26,965 bases of DNA, taken from positions 15,247-42,211 of IMG/VR virus record IMGVR_UViG_3300002231_000649; one strand, 5' to 3'. Below the pieces are notes generated by a model that was not told the DNA's origin, made no database searches, and was given only the letters and a program-made list of their open reading frames with translations. Each line of letters begins with the position of its first letter. The first letter of the stretch is position 1. The DNA is from a virus. Below, in pieces: positions 3,852-18,857 of this stretch. The position numbers were made by a program, and so were the translations under genes.

Positions 3852-5297
3852 ATGTCTGAAATTCTGCAAATGTTGGCAAAAGAAATTAGCGACATTCAGG
3901 AGCGGCAAAAGGCTATGCCGTTTGGATTAGCTAATGGCTTTGGTAATAATGGTAACATGGGTTATAAAGCTGATGGTGTAGTGAGTGAAACTGCCTACAT
4001 CTATGAAACCGGCGGCTTGTTTGGTCGCTGCGATGGACCAGCGACACTTATCAATGCTCTTGTTGCGCCTATTGGATTTGAAAAGGTGTTACAGTGGGTG
4101 GGGACCAATACGGAGCGTGAGTTTGTCGAAGCCTGGACCTCGATAGGCACAAGTGGAAACGAGCAGTCTACTGTTTGTGGCGACTGTATTAGTCCTACTT
4201 TGTCAGTCTGTAGCCAGCACTATTGTTTTGGCCGGTTCTGTCGTCAAACTCAGGAAATGCAGTTTGATCGGTTAGGCGTAATGGCTAATGAAAATGTGCC
4301 GGTTAAAGTTCTGTTTGGTAATATAACCGATGCTGCTGGTAATGTGCTACTTCGTCAAGGTGATGTAATTCGAGATGGTTTCATTCTGCAATCACGAGCG
4401 GCGGCACATCTTATCCGACTACGTAATAGCCAGATGATCTGGAATGGTAATCCGATCAACAATAATGGCCGGGTATACATGGAATTTAACGGCTTTGATC
4501 AGATTATCAATACTGGTAAAGTTGATGATAAAACTCAGATTGCTTGCGATGGCCTTGATAGCTTCTTGCTTAATTACGCTAACAATAATCCTCAGTCAGA
4601 CGATGCATTAGCTATTACCAACTATTTCCGGCGAATTGTTAACCAGCTTGCAACACGTGCTGATAGGGCCGGACTCGATTGGGATAGTAGTACAATGTAC
4701 ATTGTAATGACACCTAACACTTGGGATTGTGTAGCACGTGCTTATGCTTGTCAAGGCATTGATTTATGCACTACTAACAGCGCAACGATGAATGCTGATA
4801 ATACGCAAGCTCAAGCACGATACGAAGAGTACTTAAATCGTATGGCTTTACCAGTTAATGGCCGGTGGTATCCTGTGGTTTTAGATAATAATATCACTCA
4901 AACGACTGGACAAACCAATGGTATCTGTAGTGATATTTACTTTATCACCACAGATATTAACGGGGAGACTGTAACATTTGGACAGTATCAAGACTTCAAC
5001 AAAACCTACGGTGCAATTCGCAATGAGCTTGTATCAATGTTTGGCTCAGATGATATTGCGATTACGGACAATGGGCGTTTTGCTCTAGTTCGTGATAATA
5101 GCCGGGGCTGCTTTGATGTTCAGATTTACATCAAGCCTCGTTTAGTGGCAATGATGCCATTCCTGTTAGGACGATTGCAGAATGTTTGCTGCAACGTTCT
5201 GGGCGAACCATTCCCTGACCCGTCAGGCAGTGGACGAACCTACGAGAAGGGCGGCGGGCGCACGACTTCACCCATACCTACTCTTTACGGTTGTTAA
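3852..5297 (+). CDS. Major capsid protein, cysteine-rich
   Basis: The 481-residue product fits the size and position of an HK97-fold capsid protein after the protease/scaffold gene. The start is supported by GGGAGGT just before the ATG. The N-terminal 35 residues are helical and polar (EILQMLAKEISDIQERQKAM) and could be a short scaffold-like delta segment. Capsid-like features are the central strand/helix mix, MTPNTWDCVARAYA near residue 287, and a C-terminal segment VQIYIKPRLVAMMPFLLGRL near 425-445. I count 15 cysteines (for example CGDC, CSQHYCFGRFC, ACQGIDLC, VCCN), an unusually high number for a cytoplasmically assembled shell. Disulfide or metal stabilisation is possible. The identification relies on size, order and general fold features. 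Confidence 0.8.
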   Translation: MSEILQMLAKEISDIQERQKAMPFGLANGFGNNGNMGYKADGVVSETAYIYETGGLFGRCDGPATLINALVAPIGFEKVLQWVGTNTEREFVEAWTSIGTSGNEQSTVCGDCISPTLSVCSQHYCFGRFCRQTQEMQFDRLGVMANENVPVKVLFGNITDAAGNVLLRQGDVIRDGFILQSRAAAHLIRLRNSQMIWNGNPINNNGRVYMEFNGFDQIINTGKVDDKTQIACDGLDSFLLNYANNNPQSDDALAITNYFRRIVNQLATRADRAGLDWDSSTMYIVMTPNTWDCVARAYACQGIDLCTTNSATMNADNTQAQARYEEYLNRMALPVNGRWYPVVLDNNITQTTGQTNGICSDIYFITTDINGETVTFGQYQDFNKTYGAIRNELVSMFGSDDIAITDNGRFALVRDNSRGCFDVQIYIKPRLVAMMPFLLGRLQNVCCNVLGEPFPDPSGSGRTYEKGGGRTTSPIPTLYGC

Positions 5298-5313
5298 CTT
5301 TAAGTTTTATTTT

Positions 5314-5334
5314 AGGGGGTACGATGTACCCCCT
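5314..5334 (+). terminator. Strong hairpin after the capsid gene (terminator or attenuator)
   Basis: A perfect 9-bp stem, AGGGGGTAC at 5314-5322 pairing with GTACCCCCT at 5326-5334, closes a 3-base loop 17 bases after the capsid stop codon. The downstream bases are A+T-rich but there is no immediate U-tract, so it may act as a weak terminator, an mRNA-end stabiliser or a processing site instead of a classical intrinsic terminator. It sits exactly between the capsid gene and the promoter of the cassette. Confidence 0.6.
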
Positions 5335-5335
5335 A

Positions 5336-5364
5336 TTGCAATCATTTTATTTTTATGGTATGAT
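5336..5364 (+). promoter_or_regulatory. Sigma70-type extended -10 promoter upstream of the glycosylation cassette
   Basis: TTGCAA at 5336-5341 and TATGAT at 5359-5364 are separated by exactly 17 bases, and TGG directly before the -10 box makes an extended -10 (TGGTATGAT). The expected start of transcription is near 5371, about 17 bases before the first glycosyltransferase ATG. It is the clearest promoter I can see in the window. Confidence 0.55.
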
Positions 5365-5387: not shown

Positions 5388-6137
5388 ATGAACATTCAAT
5401 CGTACACAATAGTGCATTACGGGAAAGATTATATAGCGTGGGCCTTGCGTTCTATTTTTCCATTTGTAGAACAGGCTCACGTTTTTTATACCCCTCATCC
5501 CTCGCATGGTCATTCCTCAAATATTCGTCCAATCGAAACTGCCTCAGAAATAGCAGAAGAAGCTCAACAGTTTAATTATCAAGATAAACTTGTATGGCAT
5601 AATCAATCTGGTATTAGATATGAAGGTAATCAGAGAGATGACGCTGTAAAAGTCTGTAAAGATTCCGGCGCTGATATTATCATTGTTTTAGATGTAGATG
5701 AAATATGGCATAGCAATGTTTTAGAGGAATCTTTGGACATTGTTATAAATGGCAATGCTCGCAATTGGTTGATTAACTTTACTCACTTGTGGCGATCATT
5801 TAATCATTGCTGTCGTGATCAAGGTTGGCCGGTAAGGTTCATTGATTTGAGACAAGACAACGATAGCGTTGGGTATATTCCAAAAGAGCTTGGGGATATT
5901 TACCATTTTGGTTATGCTGTTACTGATAAGGTGATGGAATACAAATGGAATATACACGGCCATAAAAATGAACTTAGAAGTGGATGGTTGCATAATCAAT
6001 GGCTTTCTATTCTACCAGTAGAGGATTGTCACCCGACTAACGAGCGCGGTTTTTGGAATACTGAACCGTTTGATAAAAATGAGTTACCGCATTTTATGAG
6101 ACAGCATCCGTTTTTTCATTTGGATAGGATTGAATGA
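5388..6137 (+). CDS. Glycosyltransferase, family 2-like (GT-A fold)
   Basis: The protein would transfer a sugar from a nucleotide donor in the cytoplasm. The 249-residue sequence begins with SYTIVHYGKDYIAWALRSIF, followed by VEQAHVFYTPHPSHGHSS, a start I associate with a GT2-like group. The metal-binding DVD is at residues 102-104 (IIIVLDVDEIWH), after a hydrophobic strand as in GT-A enzymes. The C-terminal part is rich in His and Trp (WNIHGHKNE). It is the first gene after the cassette promoter and ends in an ATGA overlap with the next gene, which suggests coupled translation. Donor and acceptor cannot be read from the sequence. Confidence 0.7.
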   Translation: MNIQSYTIVHYGKDYIAWALRSIFPFVEQAHVFYTPHPSHGHSSNIRPIETASEIAEEAQQFNYQDKLVWHNQSGIRYEGNQRDDAVKVCKDSGADIIIVLDVDEIWHSNVLEESLDIVINGNARNWLINFTHLWRSFNHCCRDQGWPVRFIDLRQDNDSVGYIPKELGDIYHFGYAVTDKVMEYKWNIHGHKNELRSGWLHNQWLSILPVEDCHPTNERGFWNTEPFDKNELPHFMRQHPFFHLDRIE

Positions 6138-6955
6138 TAACATTTGTTAAAACCCGGCATTTCTACCAAAGCTATATTGATTTCTATCGACTAGTTGAAT
6201 TGTCTAACTTCCCAACCATTTATGTTGATGAATTGGATGTATCCAAAGATGGCGTATACATTACATCACCAATGAATGGTGAATGGCGACCTCATTTAGA
6301 TAATCAAGATAACAAAGCTCGCAATGCTCATTTGATATTGTGGAATTTAGAACGTCCGTCAGGTAGTGCCGGTTCAGTAGGGCAATACGCTAAAGCCAAT
6401 CGCAAATTGCAATACGAGAGATACATTGATGAAATATGGCACTCTGACAGGCGATTGGCTCAAGAGACAGAGCAGCGTTTTGTGGTCTTAGGCTCAGATG
6501 AAAAACTAGCAGTATCAGGTTCATATGAAAAGAAATACAATTTCTGCCATATGAGTTACCAGATCGGCAGGCGGCAATCTATTTACAAGCACTTTGACAA
6601 CATTGGCCCCAACTGCTGGCCGCCAGAACGTGATGACATCTTACGCAAGAGCCGGTTTGCCTTGAATGTTCACCAAGATAATCACCCATTCCAGGAGCCA
6701 CTACGTTTTGCCTTATTTGCTGCTTATGGACTGCCAATTCTATCTGAGGCAATCTATGATAGCTATCCATTCTCAGATGAATTTATGGTCACAGCAGACT
6801 ATGATGATTTAGTACGTAGAATGAATGAGATATTAGGCGATCCATATTCACATTGGCAACAGATAGGGCAGAGGGCAAAAGAGAGAATGTGCCACGAATT
6901 TAACTTCAAGCGAATGGTGGAGCAAGCTGTAAGTGAGAGTGTAGGATGGAGATAA
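6134..6955 (+). CDS. Glycosyltransferase, GT-B / CgeB-like
   Basis: This 273-residue protein looks like a GT-B enzyme of the CgeB/Glyco_trans_1_2 type. The diagnostic part is C-terminal: RFALNVHQDNHPFQEPLRFA near residues 175-195, then LFAAYGLPILSEAIYDSYPF, the donor-binding segment with an acidic residue (E) followed by a Gly-Leu-Pro turn. A Rossmann-like start with LILWNLERPSGS is near residue 68. It overlaps the previous gene by four bases (ATGA) and the next by ten. The function as a sugar transferase is likely, while the sugar is unknown. It is compact for a two-domain GT-B, so the N-terminal domain is probably reduced. Confidence 0.65.
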   Translation: MITFVKTRHFYQSYIDFYRLVELSNFPTIYVDELDVSKDGVYITSPMNGEWRPHLDNQDNKARNAHLILWNLERPSGSAGSVGQYAKANRKLQYERYIDEIWHSDRRLAQETEQRFVVLGSDEKLAVSGSYEKKYNFCHMSYQIGRRQSIYKHFDNIGPNCWPPERDDILRKSRFALNVHQDNHPFQEPLRFALFAAYGLPILSEAIYDSYPFSDEFMVTADYDDLVRRMNEILGDPYSHWQQIGQRAKERMCHEFNFKRMVEQAVSESVGWR

Positions 6956-7719
6956 ACGGCTTTTCATTCGTCCATAATGCCATCGAATCCGGTTATCCAA
7001 TCATAGAAGCAATTGAATCTGTAATGTTTTGGGTAGATGATTTGTATGTTGTAGATATGCAATCGACAGATACAACCCGGCAAGTCCTATCTAAAATGGG
7101 TGTCAATATCATTGATGGTAAATGGGGTAATATGGCCGGCGAGACATTAGCAGAAGCACACAAACTTCACTGCTTCTGCTCTGGTGATATTATCATCCAC
7201 TTTGAAGCTGACGAAGTCTATCCTGAGAAGTTGTTATCTGAAATTGTTTATCAAATAGATCAAGGCAAATATAATCAAGCTGTCTGGCGATTGCAACTTG
7301 AACAAAACTTTCAACGTTGTAGATGGTATCCTGAAAAAGTGCATAGAGTGTACCCAAAAGGTACTGTAAGAAAAGTTGGACATACAACAGATTTACACAA
7401 GCAAGGTAGTAAGCTGTATGTTGTTCCTCAAGAGTACGGCTATCTTTGGGATATTACAAACTGCTTTAGAGACAATTGGCTTAATCGGGTTTACAAACAA
7501 GCTGAATTGTGGAACGAGCAACCAAAATACAGAAAAGTATCTAAACACAACTCAGGTGTAAAAGAATTACCCGATGGATTGACAGGATCATTCTTGAGCC
7601 AATCTCACTGGACTTGGCAAGATACACCATTTGATTTACCGGCTAACTTGAAGCCATTGGTTGGAGTGACAAAATATTCCGAAAGTGAAGCCTATAGGAG
7701 ATTGATAAATGAAAGTTGA
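6946..7719 (+). CDS. Glycosyltransferase, family 2-like
   Basis: The 257 residues begin as a GT2 enzyme: NGFSFVHNAIESGYPIIEAI, then VDDLYVVDMQSTDTT near residues 30-44, where the DxxSTD pattern matches the nucleotide-binding loop. The acidic motif is FEADEVYP at 86-93. Two later stretches, WRLQLEQNFQRCRWYP and DTPFDLPANLKPLVGVTKY, are closely echoed in the broken gene at 9284-10188 (NFQQLKWFP; SPFDLPHILKGLVGETKY), so the two are paralogs. The start overlaps the previous gene by ten bases. This copy is intact. The sugar and acceptor are unknown. Confidence 0.7.
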   Translation: MEINGFSFVHNAIESGYPIIEAIESVMFWVDDLYVVDMQSTDTTRQVLSKMGVNIIDGKWGNMAGETLAEAHKLHCFCSGDIIIHFEADEVYPEKLLSEIVYQIDQGKYNQAVWRLQLEQNFQRCRWYPEKVHRVYPKGTVRKVGHTTDLHKQGSKLYVVPQEYGYLWDITNCFRDNWLNRVYKQAELWNEQPKYRKVSKHNSGVKELPDGLTGSFLSQSHWTWQDTPFDLPANLKPLVGVTKYSESEAYRRLINES

Positions 7720-8434
7720 TTTCGCAACCTTCTGTTATTCCGGCGATGCTCACAGGTTGCACCATCCTGGACAATTACAAAAGCAAGTTGATAGTAACAA
7801 TTATCCATTCGATAATGTAATAATAGTCTATCAAGATTTAGTGCCGGGTGATTATGAACTTGAAGACATTAACTATCCGATTATTAGAATGCCTATCTCA
7901 GATTTTGACAGATTGTTAACTCATTTTGATATTAACCTAACAGGACAATATCAATCATCAACTGATAAGCATCATAATTGGAAACATCATGTAATCAATC
8001 ACTTGGCAGCAATCTTAGCTACTGGTGCTGATTATATTGTTTTTGCTGACAATGATTGTTGGATGGTTAATCAGCCGGAAGGATTATCTTGGGTGCAAGC
8101 CGGCATTGATATACTGAGAGAAAATCCTCACGTTTTTATTGTATCGCCTAATGACGGTGAAGAAGCAAGGCTTACACAGCGAATGAGTCAACAAATGTTT
8201 CTGGTTAATGTTGATAATTTCAGAAGTATGGATTTTAATCAACCGGGCTTTGATTTTGAAGTAACTAATCATCCTGAAATGCCTGAGTACCATGCTATGC
8301 TTGAGGGGAGAATACATTATCATTGCGTGACTGCAAATAGATTTAGATATGTGTTGCCTCCTGAATATCGCTATTGGCATCATAACCGATTAACTAAAGA
8401 AGGATTATTTGAAGTTGACTACTCAAAATATTAA
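7709..8434 (+). CDS. Glycosyltransferase-like protein with DND motif
   Basis: The 241-residue product starts with VDFATFCYSGDAHRLHHPGQ, then FDNVIIVYQDL, a GT-A style first strand. The acidic motif is DND at residues 114-116 (YIVFADNDCWMV), in the position of the DxD that binds the metal and sugar nucleotide. The C-terminal half is rich in His (HYHCVTANRFRY; YRYWHHNRL). AGGAG lies just before the ATG, which overlaps the previous gene by 11 bases. I read it as a transferase of the same pathway, but it is more diverged than its neighbours and the family is less sure. Confidence 0.55.
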   Translation: MKVDFATFCYSGDAHRLHHPGQLQKQVDSNNYPFDNVIIVYQDLVPGDYELEDINYPIIRMPISDFDRLLTHFDINLTGQYQSSTDKHHNWKHHVINHLAAILATGADYIVFADNDCWMVNQPEGLSWVQAGIDILRENPHVFIVSPNDGEEARLTQRMSQQMFLVNVDNFRSMDFNQPGFDFEVTNHPEMPEYHAMLEGRIHYHCVTANRFRYVLPPEYRYWHHNRLTKEGLFEVDYSKY

Positions 8435-9287
8435 AGTTCTAATAACCGGCGCAACCGGCTTACTTGGTAAACATCTACTAGAGGTCATTCCAAACTCAAT
8501 CGGCACTTGGTTCACTAATTCACATTTCTCAAAGCCACTTTACCAAATGGATATTAGCAATAAATCACAATGCAGATATGTAATAGACATTGTTAAGCCA
8601 AATGTAATTATCCATTGTGCCGGCATAGGTAGTGTTGAATATGCCGAAACTCATTATACTGAAGTATCAAATATTAATGTTGATGCTACAAAGAACTTGC
8701 ATAAAATTGCAAGAGATTATAAAGCTCAGTTTGTGTACATTTCAAGCAATGCGGTTTTTGATGGTGATAATCCTCCATACTCAGAAACATCAAAACGTGA
8801 CCCGGTTAATTGCTATGGGAAGATTAAAAAACGCGCAGAGCAAGAGGTAATGGCCGGCAGAGATTGGCTTGTTATTCGTCCGTTTATGCTATACGGTTAT
8901 CCGTATCCGCAAGGTAGAAAGAACTGGTATAATCTGGTATATCATAAATTGATTAGTCAAGAGCAAGTAAAGTTAGTCAATGATGTTTATTGGCAACCAA
9001 CAAGTGTAATGGACGCTGCAAAAGTTATCTGGAAATTGATACAAGAATCTGAGACAGAACAGGTGTATAATATTGCGCCGGATAAAAAGCCGATGACTCT
9101 ATATAAATTTGGTCGAAAAGTTGCTAAATGTTGGGGATTGAATAAGGACTTACTTGAGCCGGTATCAAGTGATTACTTTGAGAGTATCGCCAAACGTCCA
9201 ATCAATACTCAATATGATGTGAGTAAGATTACTGAGATGGGAATTAAAATGATGACGGTTAAGGAAGGATTAAAGGCGATGCAATGA
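8409..9287 (+). CDS. NAD(P)-dependent sugar reductase/epimerase, RmlD-like
   Basis: This is an extended short-chain dehydrogenase of 292 residues, closest in layout to dTDP-4-dehydrorhamnose reductase. The nucleotide-binding loop is TGATGLLG at 13-20. The active site has Ser in YISSN near 110-114 and YxxxK at Y136/K140. VFDGDNPPYSE just after the Ser is typical of RmlD. The likely role is making a 6-deoxy sugar nucleotide for the surrounding transferases; the exact substrate is open. The start is TTG at 8409 with GAAGG at 8399-8403, inside the previous gene by 26 bases. It ends with an ATGA overlap into the next frame. The rest of a rhamnose pathway (RmlABC) is not in the window. Confidence 0.75.
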   Translation: MKLTTQNIKVLITGATGLLGKHLLEVIPNSIGTWFTNSHFSKPLYQMDISNKSQCRYVIDIVKPNVIIHCAGIGSVEYAETHYTEVSNINVDATKNLHKIARDYKAQFVYISSNAVFDGDNPPYSETSKRDPVNCYGKIKKRAEQEVMAGRDWLVIRPFMLYGYPYPQGRKNWYNLVYHKLISQEQVKLVNDVYWQPTSVMDAAKVIWKLIQESETEQVYNIAPDKKPMTLYKFGRKVAKCWGLNKDLLEPVSSDYFESIAKRPINTQYDVSKITEMGIKMMTVKEGLKAMQ

Positions 9288-10188
9288 CATATCCAATATC
9301 AGACTTGTGTCTTCATCAAAAACAACTATCAAGGCGCTTTTTGCCTTTGGGAAAGTATGGCGAGTTTATTGCCTTTTGTCTCAGAGTTTATCGTAATGGA
9401 CTTGGGAAGCACTGACGGCACACTCGAAACATTGCAAGACATTGCTCGTTATAATCCAAAAGTACAACTTATCCAACGTGATGACGTTTCCATTTCAAGA
9501 TGCAAATGTTTTTGCAGTATTGGCAAATGATTTAATCAGAATGTGTAAATATGATAATGTGCTTTATTATCAAGCCGATGAGATATGGCATCAAAAGTTG
9601 CTTTACCAAATGGAACTAAAATTTCAACAAGGTGAATTTGATTTGTCATTCTGGCGGGTTCAATTCCGTGATAACTTTCAACAGCTTAAATGGTTTCCGC
9701 ATATAGTACATCGGTGTGGTCCAAAGGATGATTTTAACTTTGTCGGCGACGGTATGAACTCAGATCGGTATATGGATGCAAAGCTGTGCTATAATGAATA
9801 TAGCGGTGGATGGTTTACCCGGTGGGGGGCAGAGTTTGATTTTGGCGGTAACGCTAAACCTGATGCACGAAAAGAAGATACTCCCGACAAGATGCCGATT
9901 TATGAAATGATAACAGACATTTCTTTAGTCGGCGGGTTTAGAGATAATATCATTCAGCGCAGAGGCTTTCATGCCCCATTATGGCATGAAGAAAGTACTA
10001 TCGAAAATCAACCGGCTGATATTTGGTTTATAAACGCTTTGAATAATGCAGATTGGATTAAAAAAGAAAGTCCATTTGATTTACCACATATTCTTAAAGG
10101 ATTAGTTGGCGAGACAAAATATTATTTACGTCCTGAATTGTTGGAAGCATTAAGGGTAGATGAAACAAGAGGACTATTAGGGATATGA
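9284..10188 (+). pseudogene. Glycosyltransferase family 2-like gene broken by two +1 frame changes
   Basis: The ATG at 9284 overlaps the previous stop as ATGA and reads MTYPISDL. The recognisable GT2 start then continues one frame over from about 9309 (VFIKNNYQGAFCLWESMASL, then FIVMDLGSTDGT). A second +1 change near 9487-9490 moves to the frame that runs to 10188, containing YYQADEIWH (the DxD equivalent) and SPFDLPHILKGLVGETKY. Removing T9308 and one T of 9487-9489 restores a single protein of about 300 residues. It is the paralog of the intact gene at 6946. The breaks are either real decay or assembly insertions. They do not sit at stop codons, so programmed shifting is unlikely. Confidence 0.7.
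9442..10188 (+). CDS. Open C-terminal fragment of the broken glycosyltransferase
   Basis: This is the longest uninterrupted part of the broken gene, 248 codons from an ATG that is probably not a real start: the first 15 or so residues are out of frame relative to the family, and the true sequence resumes near FQDANVFAVLANDLIRM. It holds the acidic QADEIWH motif and the C-terminal signature shared with the gene at 6946. It lacks the N-terminal nucleotide-binding strand, so on its own it is unlikely to be active. It ends in an ATGA overlap with the zinc ribbon gene. Confidence 0.55.
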   Translation: MLVIIQKYNLSNVMTFPFQDANVFAVLANDLIRMCKYDNVLYYQADEIWHQKLLYQMELKFQQGEFDLSFWRVQFRDNFQQLKWFPHIVHRCGPKDDFNFVGDGMNSDRYMDAKLCYNEYSGGWFTRWGAEFDFGGNAKPDARKEDTPDKMPIYEMITDISLVGGFRDNIIQRRGFHAPLWHEESTIENQPADIWFINALNNADWIKKESPFDLPHILKGLVGETKYYLRPELLEALRVDETRGLLGI

Positions 10189-10397
10189 GTATGATGACTT
10201 GCGGATATTGCGAAACTCAAAATCGAAAAGATAACCAATGCTGTATAGCTTGTGGTGGATCGTTGGTTGATGAGATTTCTCGGAAAGCAAACCCTGGAAC
10301 TCACTCAAAATCACCGGTTTCGCGTTCGGGAATTAGACAAATGTTTGGCCTAACTGTTAATGAAGCTCACGATTCATTAAGACAGGTCTTTGGATGA
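10185..10397 (+). CDS. Small zinc ribbon protein
   Basis: The 70-residue product has a CGYC pair at residues 6-9 and a second pair in CCIACGG at 19-25, spaced like a one-zinc ribbon (C6, C9, C20, C23). The remainder is polar, with FGLTVNEAHDSLRQVFG at the end. It overlaps both neighbours by four bases (ATGA), so it is translated as part of the cassette. No enzyme motif is seen. A protein- or nucleic-acid-binding adaptor is possible, but the role is unknown. A second start, ATG at 10191, is equally usable. Confidence 0.6.
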   Translation: MSMMTCGYCETQNRKDNQCCIACGGSLVDEISRKANPGTHSKSPVSRSGIRQMFGLTVNEAHDSLRQVFG

Positions 10398-10699
10398 TCC
10401 GACTAATCTTAGCCATACTCGCAACATACCGCTTAAGCCAATTAGTAGCCTGGGACAATGGGCCAGGCTTTATATTCTATAAACTCAGAAGTTGGACTAA
10501 ATTTCAATATGACACACAATCAGGCGCATGGGAAAATGTGGATGAAGCAATCAATTGTCCATATTGTTTAGGCGTTTGGTTCGCGGCACTGACAATGATA
10601 CTTTACAAATTGCCATCAAGAGTAGGTGACTTTTTCTTATTATGGCTTGGTATAGCGGGAGGCCAGGCTTTTTTACAAGGTATTACGAAGGGAAGATAA
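10394..10699 (+). CDS. DUF1360-like small membrane protein
   Basis: This 101-residue protein has three hydrophobic segments (about 2-18, 60-72 and 80-97) and the signature CPYCLGVWFAAL at 55-66, preceded by an early TYRLSQL motif. Both are hallmarks of DUF1360, found in phages and sporulating bacteria with no settled function. It sits in the membrane by prediction. ATGA overlap with the zinc ribbon gene places it in the same transcript. Why a membrane protein lies in this cassette is unclear. Anchoring or handling a lipid-linked sugar is only a guess. Confidence 0.65.
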   Translation: MIRLILAILATYRLSQLVAWDNGPGFIFYKLRSWTKFQYDTQSGAWENVDEAINCPYCLGVWFAALTMILYKLPSRVGDFFLLWLGIAGGQAFLQGITKGR

Positions 10700-10700
10700 A

Positions 10701-10739
10701 ATGAAATTCACACTACCGAAACTTAAAAAGCTAAATTGA
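10701..10739 (+). CDS. 12-residue micro-ORF, coupled to the methyltransferase start
   Basis: ATG 10701 follows a purine-rich GAAGGGAAG and encodes MKFTLPKLKKLN, ending at TGA 10737-10739. Its stop overlaps the TTG start (10736) of the next gene as TTGA. Such a frame could act as a re-initiation device for the methyltransferase, or be a cationic peptide. It is too short to test by composition. Confidence 0.35.
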   Translation: MKFTLPKLKKLN

Positions 10740-11197
10740 GCAAATCACTTACAATGGGTGACATCGGTCATCCGTTGATGGACACTTATTACAATTGGTA
10801 TTCTATGCTGACACAACACGAGAATCCATACTACAGATTATTCTATCTGATTGCTAAGGAATTTAAGCCGGGTTTTGTGGTCGAACTCGGTTCTTATCGT
10901 GCCGGTGGGTCTGGGCATTTTGCAATCGGTAATCCTAACACATTAGTTGCAACAGTGGATTGGCATAAAGATATGCCGCAACAAGCGGATGATAAAGCCG
11001 CCTGCTTGAAACATGCCAGAATGATACCTAATTTATTTTATATCAATAAATGCTCAATTGATATGTTTGATGGTTATGAGTGCGCTTTTGAAGATATTAA
11101 GGCACACAATAAACCAATTGATATTTTATTTATTGATGCCTGGCATGATGAAAAATATGTTAAACGAGAATGGGGAATTATACTCACCATTATTTAG
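10736..11197 (+). CDS. Class I methyltransferase-like protein, N-terminal part
   Basis: This is a SAM-dependent methyltransferase of the Methyltransf_24/CmcI-like type. The SAM-binding loop is FVVELGSYRAGGSGHF near residues 47-62, and IDILFIDAWHDEKYV near 131-145 is the acidic post-strand motif of the family. The frame ends at 11197 in ILTII after it has already lost register: from 11173 the -1 frame continues GNYTHHYLADEALVICDDVL, which is the expected next part. A missing G in the run 11172-11175 would join the two. TTG at 10736 is the best start. The substrate is probably a sugar or glycan of the pathway. Confidence 0.6.
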   Translation: MSKSLTMGDIGHPLMDTYYNWYSMLTQHENPYYRLFYLIAKEFKPGFVVELGSYRAGGSGHFAIGNPNTLVATVDWHKDMPQQADDKAACLKHARMIPNLFYINKCSIDMFDGYECAFEDIKAHNKPIDILFIDAWHDEKYVKREWGIILTII

Positions 11198-11436
11198 CGG
11201 ATGAAGCACTTGTAATCTGCGATGATGTACTTAATAATGCTGGTGCTTTTGATCGAATGGTCGAATGGTGGGATAGTTTTAAGTATCAGAAGTTTTTGAA
11301 TAAAGAAGTGCATCCTGGAATTCCGATGGGGTTTATGAAATATGAGAGACGAAAGACTGCGGCAAGCCAAATTAGTACGGCACAAAAAAAGACGCAAGCA
11401 AAGAAACCTAGAACTACAAAAGCAAAAAAATCTTAG
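11170..11436 (+). CDS. Class I methyltransferase-like protein, C-terminal part (other frame)
   Basis: The 88 codons read from ATG 11170 are the C-terminal half of the methyltransferase begun at 10736: HYLADEALVICDDVL matches the last strand pair of the fold, and HPGIPMGFMKYE ends the domain. A Lys/Ala/Thr-rich tail of about 30 residues follows (KKTQAKKPRTTKAKKS). The ATG lies inside the preceding frame and is probably incidental. As it stands the fragment has no SAM-binding loop. Confidence 0.55.
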   Translation: MGNYTHHYLADEALVICDDVLNNAGAFDRMVEWWDSFKYQKFLNKEVHPGIPMGFMKYERRKTAASQISTAQKKTQAKKPRTTKAKKS

Positions 11437-11447
11437 AGCTTGAATGA

Positions 11448-12026
11448 ATGGCAGAAGGCGTAAAATTGAACGAATCCATTCTTAAACAATGGCAAGCACA
11501 AGCATTAGGTATGAAGCCCTATCATAATAAGAACTTCCCCCCTTCACCCTATTACCGATTTCTTAAAATCCTTGCTCAAAACATACACCCAAGACTGTCA
11601 ATTGAATTAGGCGTATGTGGCGGCGGTGGAAGCTTGCATTTAGCTATGGGCTGGCAGCAAGGCATTGTGGTGGGAGTTGATAATCAGGACGATCATAGAG
11701 AGAATATCAATTACATCCTGAACAAGTATCAGAACTTTAGATTTTGGATAGGTGATAGTGTAAATGATGCCCGATCAATTGCGGACTATCACGGCAAGGT
11801 TGACATACTCTTTATTGATACGGTTCATACTTATGAGCGTACAATGTTAGAGTACGAGACTTGGCTTGAATTTATGGCAGATGATTATATAATTTGCTTT
11901 GATGATTTATTTAGACCAGGAATGTCTCAATTATGGAGTGAGTTGCCTAATCCCAAATTGAGACTTGATTATTTGCACGATGGCGCTGGGAATGGTGGGG
12001 GATTTGGGGTAATTTGGAATGGTTGA
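11448..12026 (+). CDS. Class I methyltransferase-like protein, intact
   Basis: The 192 residues form a complete small methyltransferase related to its upstream neighbour. The SAM loop is LSIELGVCGGGGSLHL at 50-65. VVGVDNQDDH near 73-84 carries the acidic residue that binds the ribose, and VDILFIDTVHTYERTMLEYE follows near 123-142. DYIICFDDLFRPG is the post-SAM strand. The substrate is not evident; O-methylation of a sugar fits the neighbours. Only a weak Shine-Dalgarno is seen, 11 bases separate it from the previous stop, and its end overlaps the next gene by eight bases. Confidence 0.65.
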   Translation: MAEGVKLNESILKQWQAQALGMKPYHNKNFPPSPYYRFLKILAQNIHPRLSIELGVCGGGGSLHLAMGWQQGIVVGVDNQDDHRENINYILNKYQNFRFWIGDSVNDARSIADYHGKVDILFIDTVHTYERTMLEYETWLEFMADDYIICFDDLFRPGMSQLWSELPNPKLRLDYLHDGAGNGGGFGVIWNG

Positions 12027-13767
12027 TGTCAGTATTGTAACCGGCTCTTACAATAGAATATCCTGTCTCAAAGAAATGGTTACAAGTGCCAGACAATCAT
12101 TCACAAATTGCTATGGCCTGAAACACGAATTTGTAATTGTTGACGGTAATTCACAAGATGGCACACAAGATTGGTGTAATTCTCAAGATGACATTAGGCT
12201 TATTCAGCATATTAGTCTTTTGGGTGCTGTTAAGGCTTTTAATGACGGCGCTTATGCTGCAAATGGTCAATATGTCATTCTGGCTAATGATGACATTACC
12301 TTTGTCGGAGAGAGTATATTATTAGCCTGGGTATATATGCAAGAGAATAAATCTTGCGGCATAGGTTGCTTTTATCAGGATAGAAATAATAGAGATTGGC
12401 ACATAGAAGAAATGCCGGTTGTAATTGATAATAAACAAGCAACTGCTCCGTATGGTCAAGTGTGCATTATTCCCAAATGGCTGGGTGATCAAGTTGGATG
12501 GTGGGGAGATTATCTGCATACCTATGGCGGCGATAATGAAATATCATCAAGAGTTTATGAGCTAGGTTTTCAAGTATCCCCAATTCCCGGTGCAAAAATA
12601 CACGATCTTGAAGCCGATGATGATCTAAGAAAAATGAATAACATATCAGGGCATAAAGACCCAAGAGCAGTAGTTATACGCGGGGCAGGTCATCACCCTG
12701 ACAGCGTAGCCTGGGGTAGAAAATGGTCAAAAAAAGGATTAACAGGGCCAGTAATTAGATATGGTGCAATGGATGATATAAGCAGAAAAGAGCGAATATT
12801 ATACCTGCCAATCTATGAGCAAGGTTGGGATATTCAAAAGCAGCAAAAACGAGGACTGAGAGAAGCATTAGCTAAAGTTGCTTTAGTAATCGAATATGAT
12901 TATGTTCAAAAGTTTAGTGAATTAGGCTCAATTGGAATGTTATCAGAATTATTTGATATTTGTCATCAAATTCATCCTACTTTAATCCTCACTCAAATTC
13001 ACAATGCTGATCAAGTTGATGATGAATTTATAAGACGATTACGACAAACGAATCCAATTGCTAAAATGGTAAACTGGAATGGTGATTTTTGGCCTGATAA
13101 TCTTCTTTCAAGCAGTGGTATACAGTTGGCTAAAGCTTTTGATTGGCAATTGATAATCAATCGAGAAGTGTTGCAAAAGTATAGGGAAATGGGTGTCAAT
13201 ACTGAGTATTGGCAGATCGGTTATGAGCCAGATGGATATGGGCATAAGCCGGATGTTAATTATTATGATGTTGTTTTTTTAGCTAATGGATATTCAAAAA
13301 AGCGGCAGCAATTTGTCAAAAAGCTTAGAGAATTGAATCTTAATTTTGGCTTGTATGGGTCAGGCTGGCCTAAAGACTGGGCCGATGGTCAATGCACTTA
13401 TGATTTTATTACCGGCTGTAAAGTAATGCAAGGTAGTAAAATTTCAATAGGTGATAGCCAATGGCCGGAAACTGGCTTTGTTTCCAATCGAGTGTTTCAG
13501 GCTCTTGTTGCCGGCGGCGCGGCCCTGGCTCATCAATGGTTCAAGGATATGGATCAGCTTGGTTTGATTGATGGCGAAACTTGTATAATCTGGAAAGATT
13601 TTAATGAGCTAAAACAAAAGATTAAACATTACCTTGACAATGAAGATGAAAGAAAAGCCATAGCAGAAGCCGGACAAAAATTAGCTCTTGATCATCATTC
13701 ATTTGATAATCGAGTTATGGAATTATTTGAATTGATAAACGAGAAACAAGATCATTGGCGACTTTAG
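12019..13767 (+). CDS. Two-domain glycosyltransferase (GT2 plus CgeB-like GT-B)
   Basis: At 582 residues this is the largest gene in the cassette. The first domain, 1-230, is GT2: VSIVTGSYNRISCLKEM at 4-20, FVIVDGNSQDGTQDW at 38-52, and NDD at 90-92 (YVILANDDITF). The second domain, about 260-575, is GT-B like the gene at 6134: it carries RILYLPIYEQGWDIQ at its start, DVVFLANGYSKKRQ, LYGSGWPKDWADG and FVSNRVFQALVAGGAALAHQ near the C-terminus, the acceptor/donor cleft segment. A single polypeptide therefore could add two sugars in sequence. The donor sugars are unknown. The ATG at 12019 overlaps the previous stop by eight bases. Confidence 0.7.
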   Translation: MVDVSIVTGSYNRISCLKEMVTSARQSFTNCYGLKHEFVIVDGNSQDGTQDWCNSQDDIRLIQHISLLGAVKAFNDGAYAANGQYVILANDDITFVGESILLAWVYMQENKSCGIGCFYQDRNNRDWHIEEMPVVIDNKQATAPYGQVCIIPKWLGDQVGWWGDYLHTYGGDNEISSRVYELGFQVSPIPGAKIHDLEADDDLRKMNNISGHKDPRAVVIRGAGHHPDSVAWGRKWSKKGLTGPVIRYGAMDDISRKERILYLPIYEQGWDIQKQQKRGLREALAKVALVIEYDYVQKFSELGSIGMLSELFDICHQIHPTLILTQIHNADQVDDEFIRRLRQTNPIAKMVNWNGDFWPDNLLSSSGIQLAKAFDWQLIINREVLQKYREMGVNTEYWQIGYEPDGYGHKPDVNYYDVVFLANGYSKKRQQFVKKLRELNLNFGLYGSGWPKDWADGQCTYDFITGCKVMQGSKISIGDSQWPETGFVSNRVFQALVAGGAALAHQWFKDMDQLGLIDGETCIIWKDFNELKQKIKHYLDNEDERKAIAEAGQKLALDHHSFDNRVMELFELINEKQDHWRL

Positions 13768-13928
13768 AACTTGAAACCAAGAGATTGTTAATCTCAGTAG
13801 TTAGTAAAAATAAACAAATCGGGCATCCTGTCTATGTCGAGAAGTCGGTATTAAGACAGGTTTGGGAGATGATTTTACCTTTTTTGCTGGTAGGTTTTGG
13901 AATAGCCATAGGAGTTATTTTTGAATAA
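13755..13928 (+). CDS. Small single-pass membrane protein (57 residues)
   Basis: A TTG at 13755 opens a frame that fills the gap between the two-domain transferase and the fucose synthase and overlaps both (13 and 8 bases). The product begins LATLELETKRLLISVV, has a charged middle, and ends with one hydrophobic helix, MILPFLLVGFGIAIGVIF. The frame is open through a region with no other gene. The Shine-Dalgarno is weak, so expression would depend on coupling. No family is recognised; membrane tethering of the transferase complex is a guess. Confidence 0.5.
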   Translation: MATLELETKRLLISVVSKNKQIGHPVYVEKSVLRQVWEMILPFLLVGFGIAIGVIFE

Positions 13929-14811
13929 GATAATTGTAACTGGCGGCACTGGGTTTCTAGGCAAACATACAACAAAAGAATTACAAGACAAAGGTTATAA
14001 TCCAATCGCTCTTGGTTCAAATGATTATGATTTAACATTGCCAGTTCAAACTCAGGCAATGTTTGAAGATTTACAACCCGGTTACGTTTTTCATCTTGCT
14101 GCCTCTGTCGGTGGTATAGGCGCTAACAAAAACCATCCTGGCTCATTTTTCTATAACAATATGACTATGGGTCTTAATGTCATTCATCAAGCAATGAGGT
14201 ACAACGTTAAAAAGATTATCTTTGTTGGGACTACTTGCTCATATCCTAAATTCGCTCCTACGCCATTCAATGAGCATAGCCTTTATGACGGCTACCCGGA
14301 AGGTACAAACGCGCCATACGGCATAGCAAAAAGAGCATTACTAACGATGCTCAAAGCATATCAAGATGAGTACAATTTAAGATATGCTTATCTCATTCCT
14401 ACAAATATGTATGGGCCGGGTGACAACTTCAACCCTGAAACATCACACGTCATCCCGGCACTAATCAAGAAGTGCTTGTCAGGACAAGATGAAATAGAAG
14501 TATGGGGGACCGGCAAGGCTACGAGAGATTTTATCTATGTTTCCGATGTAGCAAAAGCATTGGTTTTAGCAATGGGAAACTATGATCGTCCTGAGCCGTT
14601 GAATATTGGTAGCAGTAATGAGATAAAAATTGATACGCTTTTACATTGGGTGATGCAAAAAACTGGTTTTTGTGGTAAAATAAAGTATGATACTTCAAAA
14701 CCAGACGGGCAACCAAGAAGAGTGTTGAATACCAAAGCGATTAAAAGTGCATTTAATTGGCAACCAGAAGTTGATTTACAAGAAGGATTACAAAAGACAA
14801 TAGATTGGTAA
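13921..14811 (+). CDS. fcl: GDP-L-fucose synthase
   Basis: This enzyme converts GDP-4-keto-6-deoxymannose to GDP-L-fucose by epimerisation and NADPH reduction. The 296-residue sequence is a clear Fcl/WcaG member: nucleotide loop GGTGFLG at 8-14, AASVGGIGANKNHPGSFFYN at 60-79, the Ser of VGTTCSYP at 107, and YxxxK at Y133/K137 in APYGIAKRAL. LIPTNMYGPGDNFNPETSHV follows. The length is slightly below the usual 310-320 residues. The start is TTG 13921 with AGGAG at 13910-13914. The GDP-mannose 4,6-dehydratase (Gmd) that makes its substrate is not in the window, so the substrate must come from the host or from elsewhere in the phage. Confidence 0.88.
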   Translation: MNKIIVTGGTGFLGKHTTKELQDKGYNPIALGSNDYDLTLPVQTQAMFEDLQPGYVFHLAASVGGIGANKNHPGSFFYNNMTMGLNVIHQAMRYNVKKIIFVGTTCSYPKFAPTPFNEHSLYDGYPEGTNAPYGIAKRALLTMLKAYQDEYNLRYAYLIPTNMYGPGDNFNPETSHVIPALIKKCLSGQDEIEVWGTGKATRDFIYVSDVAKALVLAMGNYDRPEPLNIGSSNEIKIDTLLHWVMQKTGFCGKIKYDTSKPDGQPRRVLNTKAIKSAFNWQPEVDLQEGLQKTIDW

Positions 14812-14850
14812 CAAAAAGTCAATAATTAAATAACTACAATTCGCCAGAGG

Positions 14851-14899
14851 AGCGATGATTAACATCTATCAAGGTGTTATCATCGCTTTTTTTGTTTTT
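14851..14899 (+). terminator. Intrinsic terminator-like hairpin with T-tract
   Basis: AGCGATGAT at 14851-14859 pairs with ATCATCGCT at 14879-14887, and AACA/TGTT extends the stem past one bulged T. Thirteen bases of TTTTTTTGTTTTT follow. This is a textbook rho-independent terminator downstream of the fucose synthase gene. It lies inside a possible 18-codon frame (see next entry), so it could be an attenuator controlled by translation. Confidence 0.65.
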
Positions 14900-14911
14900 G
14901 GAGGCATATGA
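14855..14911 (+). CDS. 18-residue hydrophobic micro-ORF overlapping the terminator
   Basis: ATG 14855 is preceded by AGAGGAG at 14846-14852 and encodes MINIYQGVIIAFFVFGGI, stopping at TGA 14909-14911, which overlaps the next ATG (14908) as ATGA. A ribosome on this frame would cross both arms of the hairpin. This is the layout of a leader peptide that would prevent termination, or of a tiny membrane peptide. It could equally be chance. Confidence 0.4.
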   Translation: MINIYQGVIIAFFVFGGI

Positions 14912-15690
14912 CCCAAGTTTCAATAATTACACCAGCATACATTGATACTTACGATAAACTGGACTGGTTTGAAGAAATGCTCAAATCAGTTGAAAATCAA
15001 TCTTTTACAGATTGGGAAGTTGTCATAATTGATGACAAAAGCATAATTGATTTAACTGTTCTAAATAATCAATTCAAGTCACCCAAGTTTCGATGGTTCA
15101 AAACTGCTGAAAGAAGTGGTCCGGCAACTTGTCGAAACACGGCAGTTGAATTAGCACAATCAGAAGCTATTTTACCGCTTGATGCCGATGATATATTAGC
15201 CAATGAAAATGTGCTTAATATTCTTTTTACTGAATGGTCTAATGATAAGTCTAAATTTTATTATGGCAACTTGCGACGTCTTAAAAAGATCGATGGTGAA
15301 TTTCAAAAAGATGATAAAACATTCAGGTTGGCAGAGTACACATTTAAGGACAGTCTAAATAAAAATGGACTTATGCCTGTGTCCTGCATCTTTTCTTATG
15401 ATTGTTGGCAAAAGGCTGGCGGTTGGTCAAGTGAATTAGAAGCCGGTAGAGAAGATGTTGAATTCTGGATTAAAATGGGTAAAGTTGGCTGTTGCGGGCA
15501 AAAAATAAATGAAGAGACTTTAATTTATAGACAACATGAAACATCAAGAGATTATGCATTGCGCCGTGTTAATCGACGTGAAAGCGAGATGATTAACAAA
15601 ATACGTTTAATGCACTCAGATGTTTACGAAGGGAAATATCCAATGGGGTGTTGCGGTGGTGGGAAGGGTTATATCCCCTCCCCAGAATGA
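14908..15690 (+). CDS. Glycosyltransferase family 2, end runs into a virion-type protein
   Basis: This is a canonical GT2: VSIITPAYIDTYDKLDWFEE at 4-23, WEVVIIDDKSI at 36-46, GPATCRNTAVELAQ at 71-84, and DADD at 92-95 (LPLDADDILA). GREDVEFWIKMGKVG near 180 is the late acidic motif of the family. GGAGG directly before the ATG supports the start. After residue 245 the frame enters MGCCGGGKGYIPSPE and stops at 15690; that piece looks like the start of the next protein and not like a transferase end. The next protein resumes in the +1 frame. Confidence 0.75.
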   Translation: MTQVSIITPAYIDTYDKLDWFEEMLKSVENQSFTDWEVVIIDDKSIIDLTVLNNQFKSPKFRWFKTAERSGPATCRNTAVELAQSEAILPLDADDILANENVLNILFTEWSNDKSKFYYGNLRRLKKIDGEFQKDDKTFRLAEYTFKDSLNKNGLMPVSCIFSYDCWQKAGGWSSELEAGREDVEFWIKMGKVGCCGQKINEETLIYRQHETSRDYALRRVNRRESEMINKIRLMHSDVYEGKYPMGCCGGGKGYIPSPE

Positions 15691-16009
15691 GCAAACAAAA
15701 TCTGCTCCAAGTACACTTGAAGATTACTCAGAACAGGAAAAGGTATGGGTAGAGTACACTGGTAATCGTCAAGGTGGATTTGGAGTAAACGGTTCATTTA
15801 CCTCGTACAATTATAGAGTAAATGGGCCGGGACATAAATTACAAGTACATATAAATGATTTACCAAGATTTAGGATGGCCGGCAGAGGGCAAGATTTTAT
15901 TGTTGGTGCATCTCCACCAGATAACTACGAGCAACCGGGTGAAAAGAAGCCTGAAAAATATATAGCATCTGAACCAGTGCTGGCAATGATTGAAAATTTG
16001 ATGATATAG
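15620..16009 (+). CDS. Small virion-associated protein (probable), in the +1 frame
   Basis: The supported part, from about 15684, reads NEQTKSAPSTLED, then KVWVEYTGNRQGGFGVNGSF, HKLQVHINDLPRF and GQDFIVGASPP. A short domain beginning VEYTG and including a later aromatic-rich strand is something I associate with small proteins between the capsid and connector genes of several phages. Its natural start is probably ATG 15643 in the frame of the previous gene (MGCCGGGKG, with AAGGGA upstream), with a +1 change before 15690. The ATG at 15620 is therefore probably not the real start. The function is unknown; a neck or head-joining role is inferred from position. Confidence 0.5.
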   Translation: MFTKGNIQWGVAVVGRVISPPQNEQTKSAPSTLEDYSEQEKVWVEYTGNRQGGFGVNGSFTSYNYRVNGPGHKLQVHINDLPRFRMAGRGQDFIVGASPPDNYEQPGEKKPEKYIASEPVLAMIENLMI

Positions 16010-16021
16010 CGGTGGCGCAAA

Positions 16022-17212
16022 ATGGGTAGGGCTGAAACTGTAACGTTATTGCCTCTTGATCGGTATGCTGAAATAATGCGAATCCCATTAACGCATTTTA
16101 ACCAGTTAAATGGAGCATTGGCTCCCCTATTAAAAGGCTGTGGCGGTACAATTTGGGATCAGGATGCAAGAGAAGATTTAGCTTGGACAATGGCTGAAGC
16201 CGAAGAGATGATTGCTCAAGAATTAGGCTTTTGGCCTGTGCCAACATTTATTACCGATGAGCAACAATCACTTGGTTTAACTGGCATAATGGCTAATGAT
16301 TGGCGTAACGCTGAGGCTCAAGTTGATTGGAAATATGTACAAGCATATGGAACTGAACAATTAACGCTTAAACAAGCCGATGCTGGCGTACAATATACCG
16401 ATGCTGATAATGATCCATTAGGTAGACCAGAATTAGCCACTATAGGCACTGCTATTTATGCTGATTTACCAGCTTGTGATGATCCTTGTGAAGTAGCTGT
16501 TTTTTTTAGAGTAGCAGATGGCGCTGAGGATGCCGCCGATCCACGTTGGGAAATCAAGCCGATTAAAGTGGATATTGATGGTGCTACAATGCGGATTACG
16601 GCTGAAAGTTCATTATTCGTTAGACCTGAATTATGGACTTTAACAGAAGCCGATTGTAAAGGCTCAGATGACGCTAATAAATGGCAATGGAATTGGCAAA
16701 CTGCCAATTTGGTGTCAATGGTAGATGTGTATTGTCGAACTGTAAATACAACTTTGCCATTAACATTGCGTTGGGATAATGTTTGTGGTTGCTCTACTGC
16801 AATATGTGAACACGTCACTCAAGCCGCTTGCGCTTATAGAACGGATAATCGACGCGGGTATTTTATTGCACGTCCTGCAAGTGGTGCAAACGTAGAGGCA
16901 ACACCACAATACTTGCAACCACCTGAAAGTGTGCTTGTGAATTATCGGGCTGGCTATCCAATCAATAGCCGCACTTGCAGAATGAACCCGCAATTAGAAC
17001 GAGCTATTGTCAAGTTAACCAATGCTCTCTTGCCTGAACCACCTTGCGGGTTTTGTGATGCGGCTCAAACAAGATGGAAGCAAGACAGAACTAATGTTGA
17101 CCCATTAACGCCGGAAGCGGCAAGCTTACCGTGGGATTTGTATACTCAAGGCGCTTTGGAAGCGTGGCGAATAGTCAAGAAATTCGCAAGAGGTCGGGGT
17201 GGCAAAATGTAA
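16022..17212 (+). CDS. Head-tail connector / adaptor-like structural protein
   Basis: The 396-residue product has the layout of a phage neck adaptor. Its N-terminus LPLDRYAEIMRIPLTHFNQL is followed by AREDLAWTMAEAEEMIAQEL, the helical bundle typical of connector proteins that bind under the portal. The long remainder contains many Cys (I count 12; for example CGCSTAIC and CGFC) and a C-terminal helix EAWRIVKKFARGRGGK. It is longer than classical gp6/gp15 adaptors, so it may carry an extra beta domain. The weak ribosome site (GGTGGC) suggests coupling to the previous gene, and its stop overlaps the next ATG as TAATG. Confidence 0.6.
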   Translation: MGRAETVTLLPLDRYAEIMRIPLTHFNQLNGALAPLLKGCGGTIWDQDAREDLAWTMAEAEEMIAQELGFWPVPTFITDEQQSLGLTGIMANDWRNAEAQVDWKYVQAYGTEQLTLKQADAGVQYTDADNDPLGRPELATIGTAIYADLPACDDPCEVAVFFRVADGAEDAADPRWEIKPIKVDIDGATMRITAESSLFVRPELWTLTEADCKGSDDANKWQWNWQTANLVSMVDVYCRTVNTTLPLTLRWDNVCGCSTAICEHVTQAACAYRTDNRRGYFIARPASGANVEATPQYLQPPESVLVNYRAGYPINSRTCRMNPQLERAIVKLTNALLPEPPCGFCDAAQTRWKQDRTNVDPLTPEAASLPWDLYTQGALEAWRIVKKFARGRGGKM

Positions 17213-17743: not shown

Positions 17744-18856
17744 ATGGCAGATGAAGTTCTTGTATTAAAAGGTGAAGGTAATGTTGATGTCCAGGTTGGA
17801 GGTGCCGGCAACAATTGGGATTATCTTAGTGCTTGCGCTTCTATGAGTGGCCCAACTGTGCCGAGTGGTAGTACTGAAATCAGATGGTGTCAAGACCCGA
17901 CCAAAGCAAATGGTTTTAAGATTAGTAGTCAATTTAAGACAGCGCCAGATCAAGTGAGCGCAGATTTAATGACTAAATTGGGCAAGATTGATTATCTAAA
18001 TAATCTCAATTGTCCATTTGCTTTACGAGCGCGTTATGCCAAATGCGGCGAGAGAGAAGACCCATCAAATTATGATCCAATTATGCTTACATATTGTTCA
18101 GCGCAATTGCAAGAGCATAGCTATGATGATTTAGTTGTCACTGATCCAGGTGATCAAGATGAAATTTTAGTAACTGCACCCTGGCAAGCGTCTTATGAAT
18201 ATCGAATTAAAAAGATAACTCCGGCCCGTATAGGCACAGCAGCCTTGTTAGGCGATCAGGCCATTAACGATATTGAGTACTGTGATGAATTTACTTGTGG
18301 TGGATACTGCGGTGATGCTACTGACGGCTGCTCAGTTATTTATGGGGCTACTGACGCTGATACCACGCCATACGCAGCGCCTAATCTAATTAAAGGATTA
18401 AAGAATTCTAAAACTAATTTTATCACCTGGAGTGCTACTCCGGTTTTAGGATTAAACAATAATCTTGAAGGTGTAGAATGCGCTGGTAATAGAGTGATTG
18501 TATCAAGCAATGGTGATAGTGCTATTGCGTATTCTGATACGCCAACAGATCAAGATACCTGGAATGTAGTTGCAATTACCAATGCTCCAACTGCCAATCC
18601 TAATGCTCTTTTTGCACGGACTGCAAGAGAGACATGGCTTGGTGCTAATAATGGATTTATCTATAAATCTATAGATGGTGGAGCAACCTGGAGTGCTGTA
18701 CACCAAGCTGAAATCACCACACAAAATATCAATGCTGTCTGGGCGCATGATAAAGATTTAGCTTATGCTGTTGGCGATGCTGGCATAATTTTACGCACTA
18801 AAGACGGCGGGCAAACTTGGGAGAATGTAACCGAAACTAGCACGACCGGCGCTTAA
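17744..18856 (+). CDS. Major tail protein with beta-propeller, first part
   Basis: The N-terminal 180 residues are a tail-tube type domain (LVLKGEGNVDVQVGGAGNNW at the start; WQASYEYRIKKITPARIG near 145-162), and the position after the gp10-like gene fits the major tail protein. From about residue 210 it becomes a repeat-rich propeller: SIDGGATW near 307 and TKDGGQTW near 351 are BNR/Asp-box repeats like those of sialidases and Ycf48. The frame stops at TAA 18854-18856 after TETSTTGA, but the +1 frame carries on at once with more blades. GAGGAG before the ATG supports the start. Cys-rich patches (CDEFTCGGYCGDATDGC) lie between the two domains. Confidence 0.6.
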   Translation: MADEVLVLKGEGNVDVQVGGAGNNWDYLSACASMSGPTVPSGSTEIRWCQDPTKANGFKISSQFKTAPDQVSADLMTKLGKIDYLNNLNCPFALRARYAKCGEREDPSNYDPIMLTYCSAQLQEHSYDDLVVTDPGDQDEILVTAPWQASYEYRIKKITPARIGTAALLGDQAINDIEYCDEFTCGGYCGDATDGCSVIYGATDADTTPYAAPNLIKGLKNSKTNFITWSATPVLGLNNNLEGVECAGNRVIVSSNGDSAIAYSDTPTDQDTWNVVAITNAPTANPNALFARTARETWLGANNGFIYKSIDGGATWSAVHQAEITTQNINAVWAHDKDLAYAVGDAGIILRTKDGGQTWENVTETSTTGA

Positions 18857-18857
18857 T

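What the first reader, a model, noticed from the sequence alone, without database searches (positions are those of the whole stretch)
5388..16009. A glycan-building cassette inserted between the capsid and connector genes
Seven glycosyltransferase genes (two folds, one bifunctional), an RmlD-like reductase, a GDP-L-fucose synthase, two methyltransferases and small membrane proteins form one same-strand, overlapping block of about 10.6 kb inside the late morphogenesis operon. Late timing and the place beside the capsid gene favour modification of the virion itself over modification of host envelope or DNA. Some mycobacteriophages are known to glycosylate capsid and tail proteins; a multi-sugar, possibly fucosylated and methylated glycan of this size would go beyond simple decoration.
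Basis: partly seen in the sequence, partly recalled or inferred. Interest (0 to 1): 0.8.

Follow-up and report, generated by a model that had tools for sequence, protein, structure and literature searches.

The report
Capsid-linked sugar-building gene cassette in phages
This uncultured tailed phage, like about 20 related viral contigs, keeps a block of sugar-attaching, sugar-making and methylating enzyme genes among its head genes, most likely to coat its own particle with a methylated sugar chain; this is known for a few mycobacteriophages but not at this size or in this lineage.

Summary
Window 5388-16009 is a co-directional, 97% coding block between the major capsid gene (3852-5297, assigned by position) and the head-tail connector (16022). 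It holds seven glycosyltransferase (GT) genes (one bifunctional, one weakly supported), an RmlD-like reductase, a GDP-fucose-synthase-like enzyme, two methyltransferases and a DUF1360 membrane protein. Three genes are split by frameshifts that relatives lack, probably sequencing errors.

It is not a recent insertion. About 20 related viral contigs carry the block or its core in the head module, with capsid proteins down to about 21% identity; the bifunctional GT lies between capsid and connector in 13 of 15 contigs with both flanks known. Core GT trees track the capsid tree (r 0.87-0.92). The last GT is fused, in all 16 relatives that show it, to a C-terminal cysteine/beta module with no recognised relative.

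No TET dioxygenase or integrase was found, the GTs lack predicted membrane segments, and no lipid-carrier or export genes were seen. Cytosolic glycosylation of the phage's own virion proteins is therefore favoured over DNA or host-envelope modification, but glycosylation and acceptor are unproven. Closest precedent: the Corndog methyltransferase/GT genes. The fucose gene is an optional accessory.

The parts
3852..5297 (+). putative major capsid protein (flank and proposed acceptor)
   Evidence: gene order after protease/scaffold 1862; conserved in 19 of 22 related records; fold not confirmed
5313..5335 (+). strong RNA hairpin after the capsid stop codon
   Evidence: -16.4 kcal/mol; region z-score -2.84; a strong hairpin at this place is the best or among the best of compared gene ends, first in 13 of 19 contigs
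5388..6137 (+). probable glycosyltransferase, no Pfam family
   Evidence: profile match to the 6946/9442 GT family; conserved in 18 records
6134..6955 (+). glycosyltransferase, Glyco_trans_1_2
   Evidence: 1.6e-7
6946..7719 (+). glycosyltransferase family 2
   Evidence: 1.3e-5
7709..8434 (+). probable glycosyltransferase family 2 (weak)
   Evidence: E 0.048; relatives 33-60% identical
8409..9287 (+). RmlD-like nucleotide-sugar reductase
   Evidence: Pfam 3.5e-50; NCBIfam rmlD 1e-45, below the equivalog cut-off; S/T..YxxxK motif kept
9288..10188 (+). glycosyltransferase family 2, frameshifted in this contig
   Evidence: full-length 306-aa relative is GT2 1.1e-7; window pieces align to it
10394..10699 (+). 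DUF1360 small membrane protein
   Evidence: 1.1e-10; one predicted membrane segment
10736..11436 (+). methyltransferase, frameshifted in this contig
   Evidence: 234-aa relative Methyltransf_24 2.3e-10, RMNT_CmcI 4e-5
11448..12026 (+). methyltransferase, Methyltransf_24
   Evidence: 6.1e-12
12019..13767 (+). bifunctional glycosyltransferase (GT2 + Glyco_trans_1_2)
   Evidence: 8.6e-15 and 7.5e-20; 40-63% identical in 15 related loci
13921..14811 (+). GDP-L-fucose-synthase-like enzyme (accessory)
   Evidence: found only in G000, G004, G013
14908..16009 (+). glycosyltransferase family 2 fused to a cysteine/beta C-terminal module; frameshifted near 15670 in this contig
   Evidence: single ORF in 15 relatives and L066; GT-A fold
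16022..17212 (+). putative head-tail connector (right flank)
   Evidence: gene order; neck gene 17131 follows; conserved in relatives

Best explanation
The block is a virion-glycosylation cassette inherited with the head genes. During late infection, cytosolic phage glycosyltransferases use nucleotide sugars from the host, finished by the phage RmlC/RmlD-like enzymes (probably a 6-deoxyhexose such as rhamnose) and in some phages by the fucose-synthase-like enzyme. They build a short multi-sugar chain on a phage structural protein, most likely the capsid protein, and methyltransferases methylate it. The last GT carries a C-terminal module that I propose docks it to the head or its assembly intermediates; a hairpin after the capsid gene would keep enzyme levels below capsid levels. 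Shown here: gene content, order, conservation, fusion, co-evolution, hairpin. Inferred: glycosylation itself, acceptor, sugar identity, docking, timing.
For: Core kept in the head module across about 20 contigs, capsid identity down to about 21%. Bifunctional GT between capsid and connector in 13 of 15 contigs with both flanks known. Distances of core GTs track the capsid (r 0.87-0.92). GT fused to a C-terminal module in 16 relatives, with DxD-type and other GT residues invariant and a GT-A fold. Low dN/dS. GTs without predicted membrane segments. Methyltransferases and GTs in the head operon are the same logic as Corndog gp35-38 (PMC4351075), reported to modify capsid and tail tube (PMC11600133, PMC12363180). 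G001 has three more GT2 genes in its tail module.
Against: No experiment; acceptor unknown. Capsid protein identified by position only. No homology by tblastn to the known glycosylating mycobacteriophages. Distance of GT to capsid alone is not significant. Related sequences inflate the distance correlation.
Confidence: 0.65

Rival explanations
1. The cassette modifies host surface glycans (superinfection exclusion or receptor change) and only happens to lie in the head operon.
For: Phage GTs of the GtrB/TarP type act on host glycans; weak PHROG and structural similarity to GtrB and TarP. DUF1360 membrane protein present.
Against: No flippase, initiating lipid transferase, polymerase or ligase among cassette families; GTs lack predicted membrane segments; no tyrosine integrase found in three genomes, though these are fragments; head-module position conserved over wide divergence.
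Confidence: 0.15
2. The cassette glycosylates phage DNA (hypermodified bases) as protection against host nucleases.
For: Two C5-cytosine methylase genes in the window's genome; phage GTs are known to act on DNA.
Against: No TET/JBP dioxygenase in the three genomes; methylases absent from G001 and G002 although the cassette is there; GTs sit with head genes, not with replication genes.
Confidence: 0.07
3. The enzymes make a polysaccharide or other small glycan not covalently tied to the virion, or the region is a hot spot of unrelated sugar genes without one product.
For: Accessory genes come and go (fucose synthase, extra methyltransferases, NUDIX, DUF5662); block length varies from 10.7 to about 26.6 kb.
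Against: Core genes keep their order and evolve under low dN/dS; no polymerase or export genes seen.
Confidence: 0.1

Closest known systems
Mycobacteriophage virion glycosylation genes: Corndog gp35-gp38 (cluster O), Che8 gp110, Myrna
   Same: An O-methyltransferase and several glycosyltransferases inside the virion structural operon (PMC4351075); reported to modify capsid and tail tube (PMC11600133, PMC12363180).
   Different: Corndog has four genes between portal and protease; here 10.7-26.6 kb between capsid and connector, with nucleotide-sugar enzymes and a GT fused to a C-terminal module; no tblastn homology; no experimental proof here.
Late dTDP-rhamnose and GDP-fucose pathway enzymes (RmlC, RmlD, Fcl)
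   Same: Family membership and, for RmlD and Fcl, catalytic motifs; RmlC-like and RmlD-like genes adjacent in G021.
   Different: RmlC, RmlD and Fcl matches are below NCBIfam equivalog cut-offs; the RmlC-like cupin is short and lacks the usual lysine; no RmlA and no separate RmlB or Gmd found, so the host would supply precursors.
GtrB-type and TarP phage glycosyltransferases (host glycan conversion)
   Same: GT2/GT-A domain similarity.
   Different: Encoded in the head operon, no membrane segments, several GTs, no flippase.

Membership tests
Phage virion glycosylation cassette (Corndog/Che8 type) | GT and methyltransferase genes inside the virion structural operon | tested here: met
Phage virion glycosylation cassette (Corndog/Che8 type) | Glycans demonstrated on capsid or tail tube protein | not testable with these tools
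   needs virions and mass spectrometry
Phage virion glycosylation cassette (Corndog/Che8 type) | Sequence homology to the known mycobacteriophage GTs | tested here: not met
   tblastn of six cassette proteins against 50,697 phage records gave no mycobacteriophage hit; so no claim of descent, only of like function
DNA hypermodification by TET plus GT | TET/JBP dioxygenase encoded with the GTs | tested here: not met
   PF12851 absent from G000, G001, G002; records may be incomplete
Gtr-type O-antigen conversion | flippase GtrA and membrane GTs in a temperate phage | tested here: not met
   no GtrA family in the cassette, no membrane segments in the GTs, no tyrosine integrase
dTDP-L-rhamnose pathway | RmlC and RmlD equivalog scores and catalytic residues | tested here: inconclusive
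   families match but both below equivalog cut-offs; RmlC lysine not kept
GDP-L-fucose synthase | family score and catalytic motifs | tested here: inconclusive
   best model 277 bits against a cut-off of 500; Cys, YxxxK and His motifs kept

The most novel reading that the evidence does not exclude
A capsid-tethered glycan assembly line: one GT is permanently fused to a lineage-specific head-binding module that brings glycan synthesis to the assembling head, so that a multi-sugar methylated chain (with rhamnose or fucose) is built on the capsid of a widespread uncultured phage lineage, with exchangeable accessory enzymes that vary the outer sugars.
Probability: 0.3. Interest if true: 0.8.

Novelty: new variant of a known kind. 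Interest (0 to 1): 0.62.

Why it matters
In the papers read here, phage virion glycosylation has been demonstrated only for a few mycobacteriophages. This work points to a separate, old lineage of environmental phages that keeps a far larger glycan toolkit with its capsid genes, including a GT with a dedicated C-terminal module. If the virions are coated, it opens a testable question, what a glycan coat does for a phage in the environment (protection, adhesion, stability), and it would supply a natural cytosolic protein-glycosylation system to study.

Tried and rejected
Recent insertion: rejected; position conserved in many relatives, GC only slightly lower (38.4% against 41.5% and 41.2%). Decay of the cassette from its frameshifts: not favoured, since a tail gene is broken in the same way and relatives are intact. 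Programmed frameshift for the GT fusion: not favoured, relatives encode it in one frame. AlphaFold of the capsid protein: uninformative; profile search against PDB gave nothing relevant. Standalone relatives of the C-terminal module: none in phages, PHROGs or Pfam; my recollection of similar small head-module proteins is a lead from memory only. Host from two genome-contig scans: nothing. Distance of capsid to bifunctional GT: not significant (combined p 0.07), so gene order and co-evolution are used instead. Promoter and terminator scans: promoters near chance. The original virion-glycosylation paper (PMC10527164) is not held.

Full report
WHAT IS THERE. The window is bases 15,247-42,211 of a 53,708-bp uncultured virus record. 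Gene order is that of a long-tailed phage: terminase, RmlC-like cupin, portal, a small protein, a putative protease/scaffold (1862), a putative major capsid protein (3852), the block 5388-16009, connector (16022), neck (17131, phrog_5), tail protein (17744/18858), tape measure (20043, phrog_1272 4e-66). The block is 97% coding on one strand.

FRAMESHIFTS. Three genes of the block are broken in the window (near 9480, 11174 and 15670) but whole in relatives; the tail gene 17744/18858 is broken too and whole in relatives. The record also contains ambiguous bases. Sequencing error is the simplest reading.

RELATIVES. No match by DNA or capsid protein in 50,697 phage records, and none for capsid or bifunctional GT in 84,980 prokaryote species genomes, so the host is unknown and the lineage uncultured. 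Scans of IMG/VR gave two long relatives and then about 20 contigs. The capsid profile was found in 19 of 22 records searched; the three misses are two short fragments and a contig that starts inside the cassette. In a near group (capsid about 58-67% identical) the order is capsid, 5388, 6134, 6946, 7709, RmlD, 9442, DUF1360, methyltransferases, bifunctional GT, (Fcl), fused GT, connector; in a far group (about 21-32%) the core is capsid, 6134/5388, methyltransferase, bifunctional GT, fused GT, DUF1360, connector, with most of the full set again in G008 and G021. In G015 and G016 the 5388-like gene lies upstream of the capsid gene, and in G017 and G019 the bifunctional GT does. The capsid-to-connector interval is 10.7 kb here, 13.6 in G012, about 18 in G001 and G002, 24.6 in G004 and 26.6 in G013. 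The Fcl-like gene was found only in G000, G004 and G013. Accessory genes in relatives include NUDIX, DUF5662 and more methyltransferases.

CO-EVOLUTION AND SELECTION. Tree distances of the capsid protein correlate with those of the bifunctional GT (0.87), the 5388 family (0.91), the fused GT (0.92), the connector (0.94) and the protease (0.95); the 6134 family (0.68), the methyltransferase (0.62) and 6946 (0.29) less so. The core thus travels with the head genes while other enzymes are exchanged or duplicated. Paralogy, two deep clades and small numbers limit this test. Between G001 and G002, dN/dS is 0.03-0.15 wherever it could be estimated, but dS is near saturation.

THE FUSED GT. In all 15 relatives where the gene was read, and in L066 (found by the C-terminal module alone), the GT2 domain continues into MGCCG-like cysteines, a 60-residue probably beta module, a linker, and in several an end that weakly matches helix-hairpin-helix. 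AlphaFold gives a confident GT-A domain and a moderately confident strand-rich module; Foldseek places the GT domain with the fucosyltransferase WrtF, the rhamnosyltransferase RmlT and TarP. The module has no recognised relative. Its place near the connector suggests, but does not show, docking to the head.

MECHANISM. The simplest reading is cytosolic, stepwise glycosylation of a phage structural protein. The GTs have no predicted membrane segments, and no initiating lipid transferase, flippase, polymerase or oligosaccharyltransferase was seen among the cassette proteins scanned; only late nucleotide-sugar steps are phage-encoded (no RmlA). The capsid tail GSGRxYExGGGRTxTPxPTLY of the near group is a candidate acceptor, by analogy with C-terminal glycans on mycobacteriophage capsids (reported in PMC12619734); it is a guess. 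A strong hairpin follows the capsid stop codon in nearly every contig and is the strongest of the gene ends compared in 13 of 19, fitting abundant capsid and scarce enzymes. G001 carries three further GT2 genes in its tail module, as if the tail were treated too.

ALTERNATIVES. DNA glycosylation lacks the expected dioxygenase, and the C5-methylases are not linked to the cassette. Host-envelope modification lacks export machinery and a tyrosine integrase but cannot be excluded. A glycan not bound to the virion is possible.

COMPARISON. Corndog-type mycobacteriophages have an O-methyltransferase and three GT genes between portal and protease, detected in infected cells and proposed, later reported, to modify capsid and tail tube (PMC4351075; PMC11600133; PMC12363180). 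The primary paper (Freeman et al. 2023) is not in the library and is cited second-hand. The present system works like it in gene logic, shows no homology by tblastn, and is larger. I class it as a new variant of a known kind.

Noticed in passing
window 17744-19268: Tail protein with a C-terminal BNR/YCF48-like beta-propeller (PSII_BNR 1.7e-9), one 502-aa ORF in relatives; an unusual sugar-binding-like domain on a putative tail tube protein.
   Followed up: partly
window 3852-5297: Capsid protein with many cysteines conserved among four relatives, possibly disulfide- or metal-stabilised.
   Followed up: no
window 5313-5364: Hairpin after the capsid gene followed by a promoter-like site with extended -10 (5336-5364); could give the cassette its own transcript.
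   Followed up: partly
L004 3563-4297: GIY-YIG-like homing endonuclease ORF between capsid gene and cassette in one relative (read from its sequence).
   Followed up: no
G001 57949-59775 (L016): Three further GT2 genes within the tail module of a relative.
   Followed up: no
L002 7453-9352: Two C5-cytosine methylase genes in the early region of the window's genome, absent from G001 and G002.
   Followed up: partly
L003 1886-4708: 940-aa ORF that reads like an SNF2-type helicase joined to a DNA methyltransferase.
   Followed up: no
L003 9240-11605: A hydrophobic-segment ORF and an ATPase-like ORF (GPAESGKSE P-loop) reminiscent of plasmid transfer genes near the end of the record; DUF2637 was among the families seen in this gene set.
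   Followed up: no
window 19281-20043: Two overlapping ORFs just before the tape measure gene, the usual place of tail assembly chaperones expressed by frameshift.
   Followed up: no
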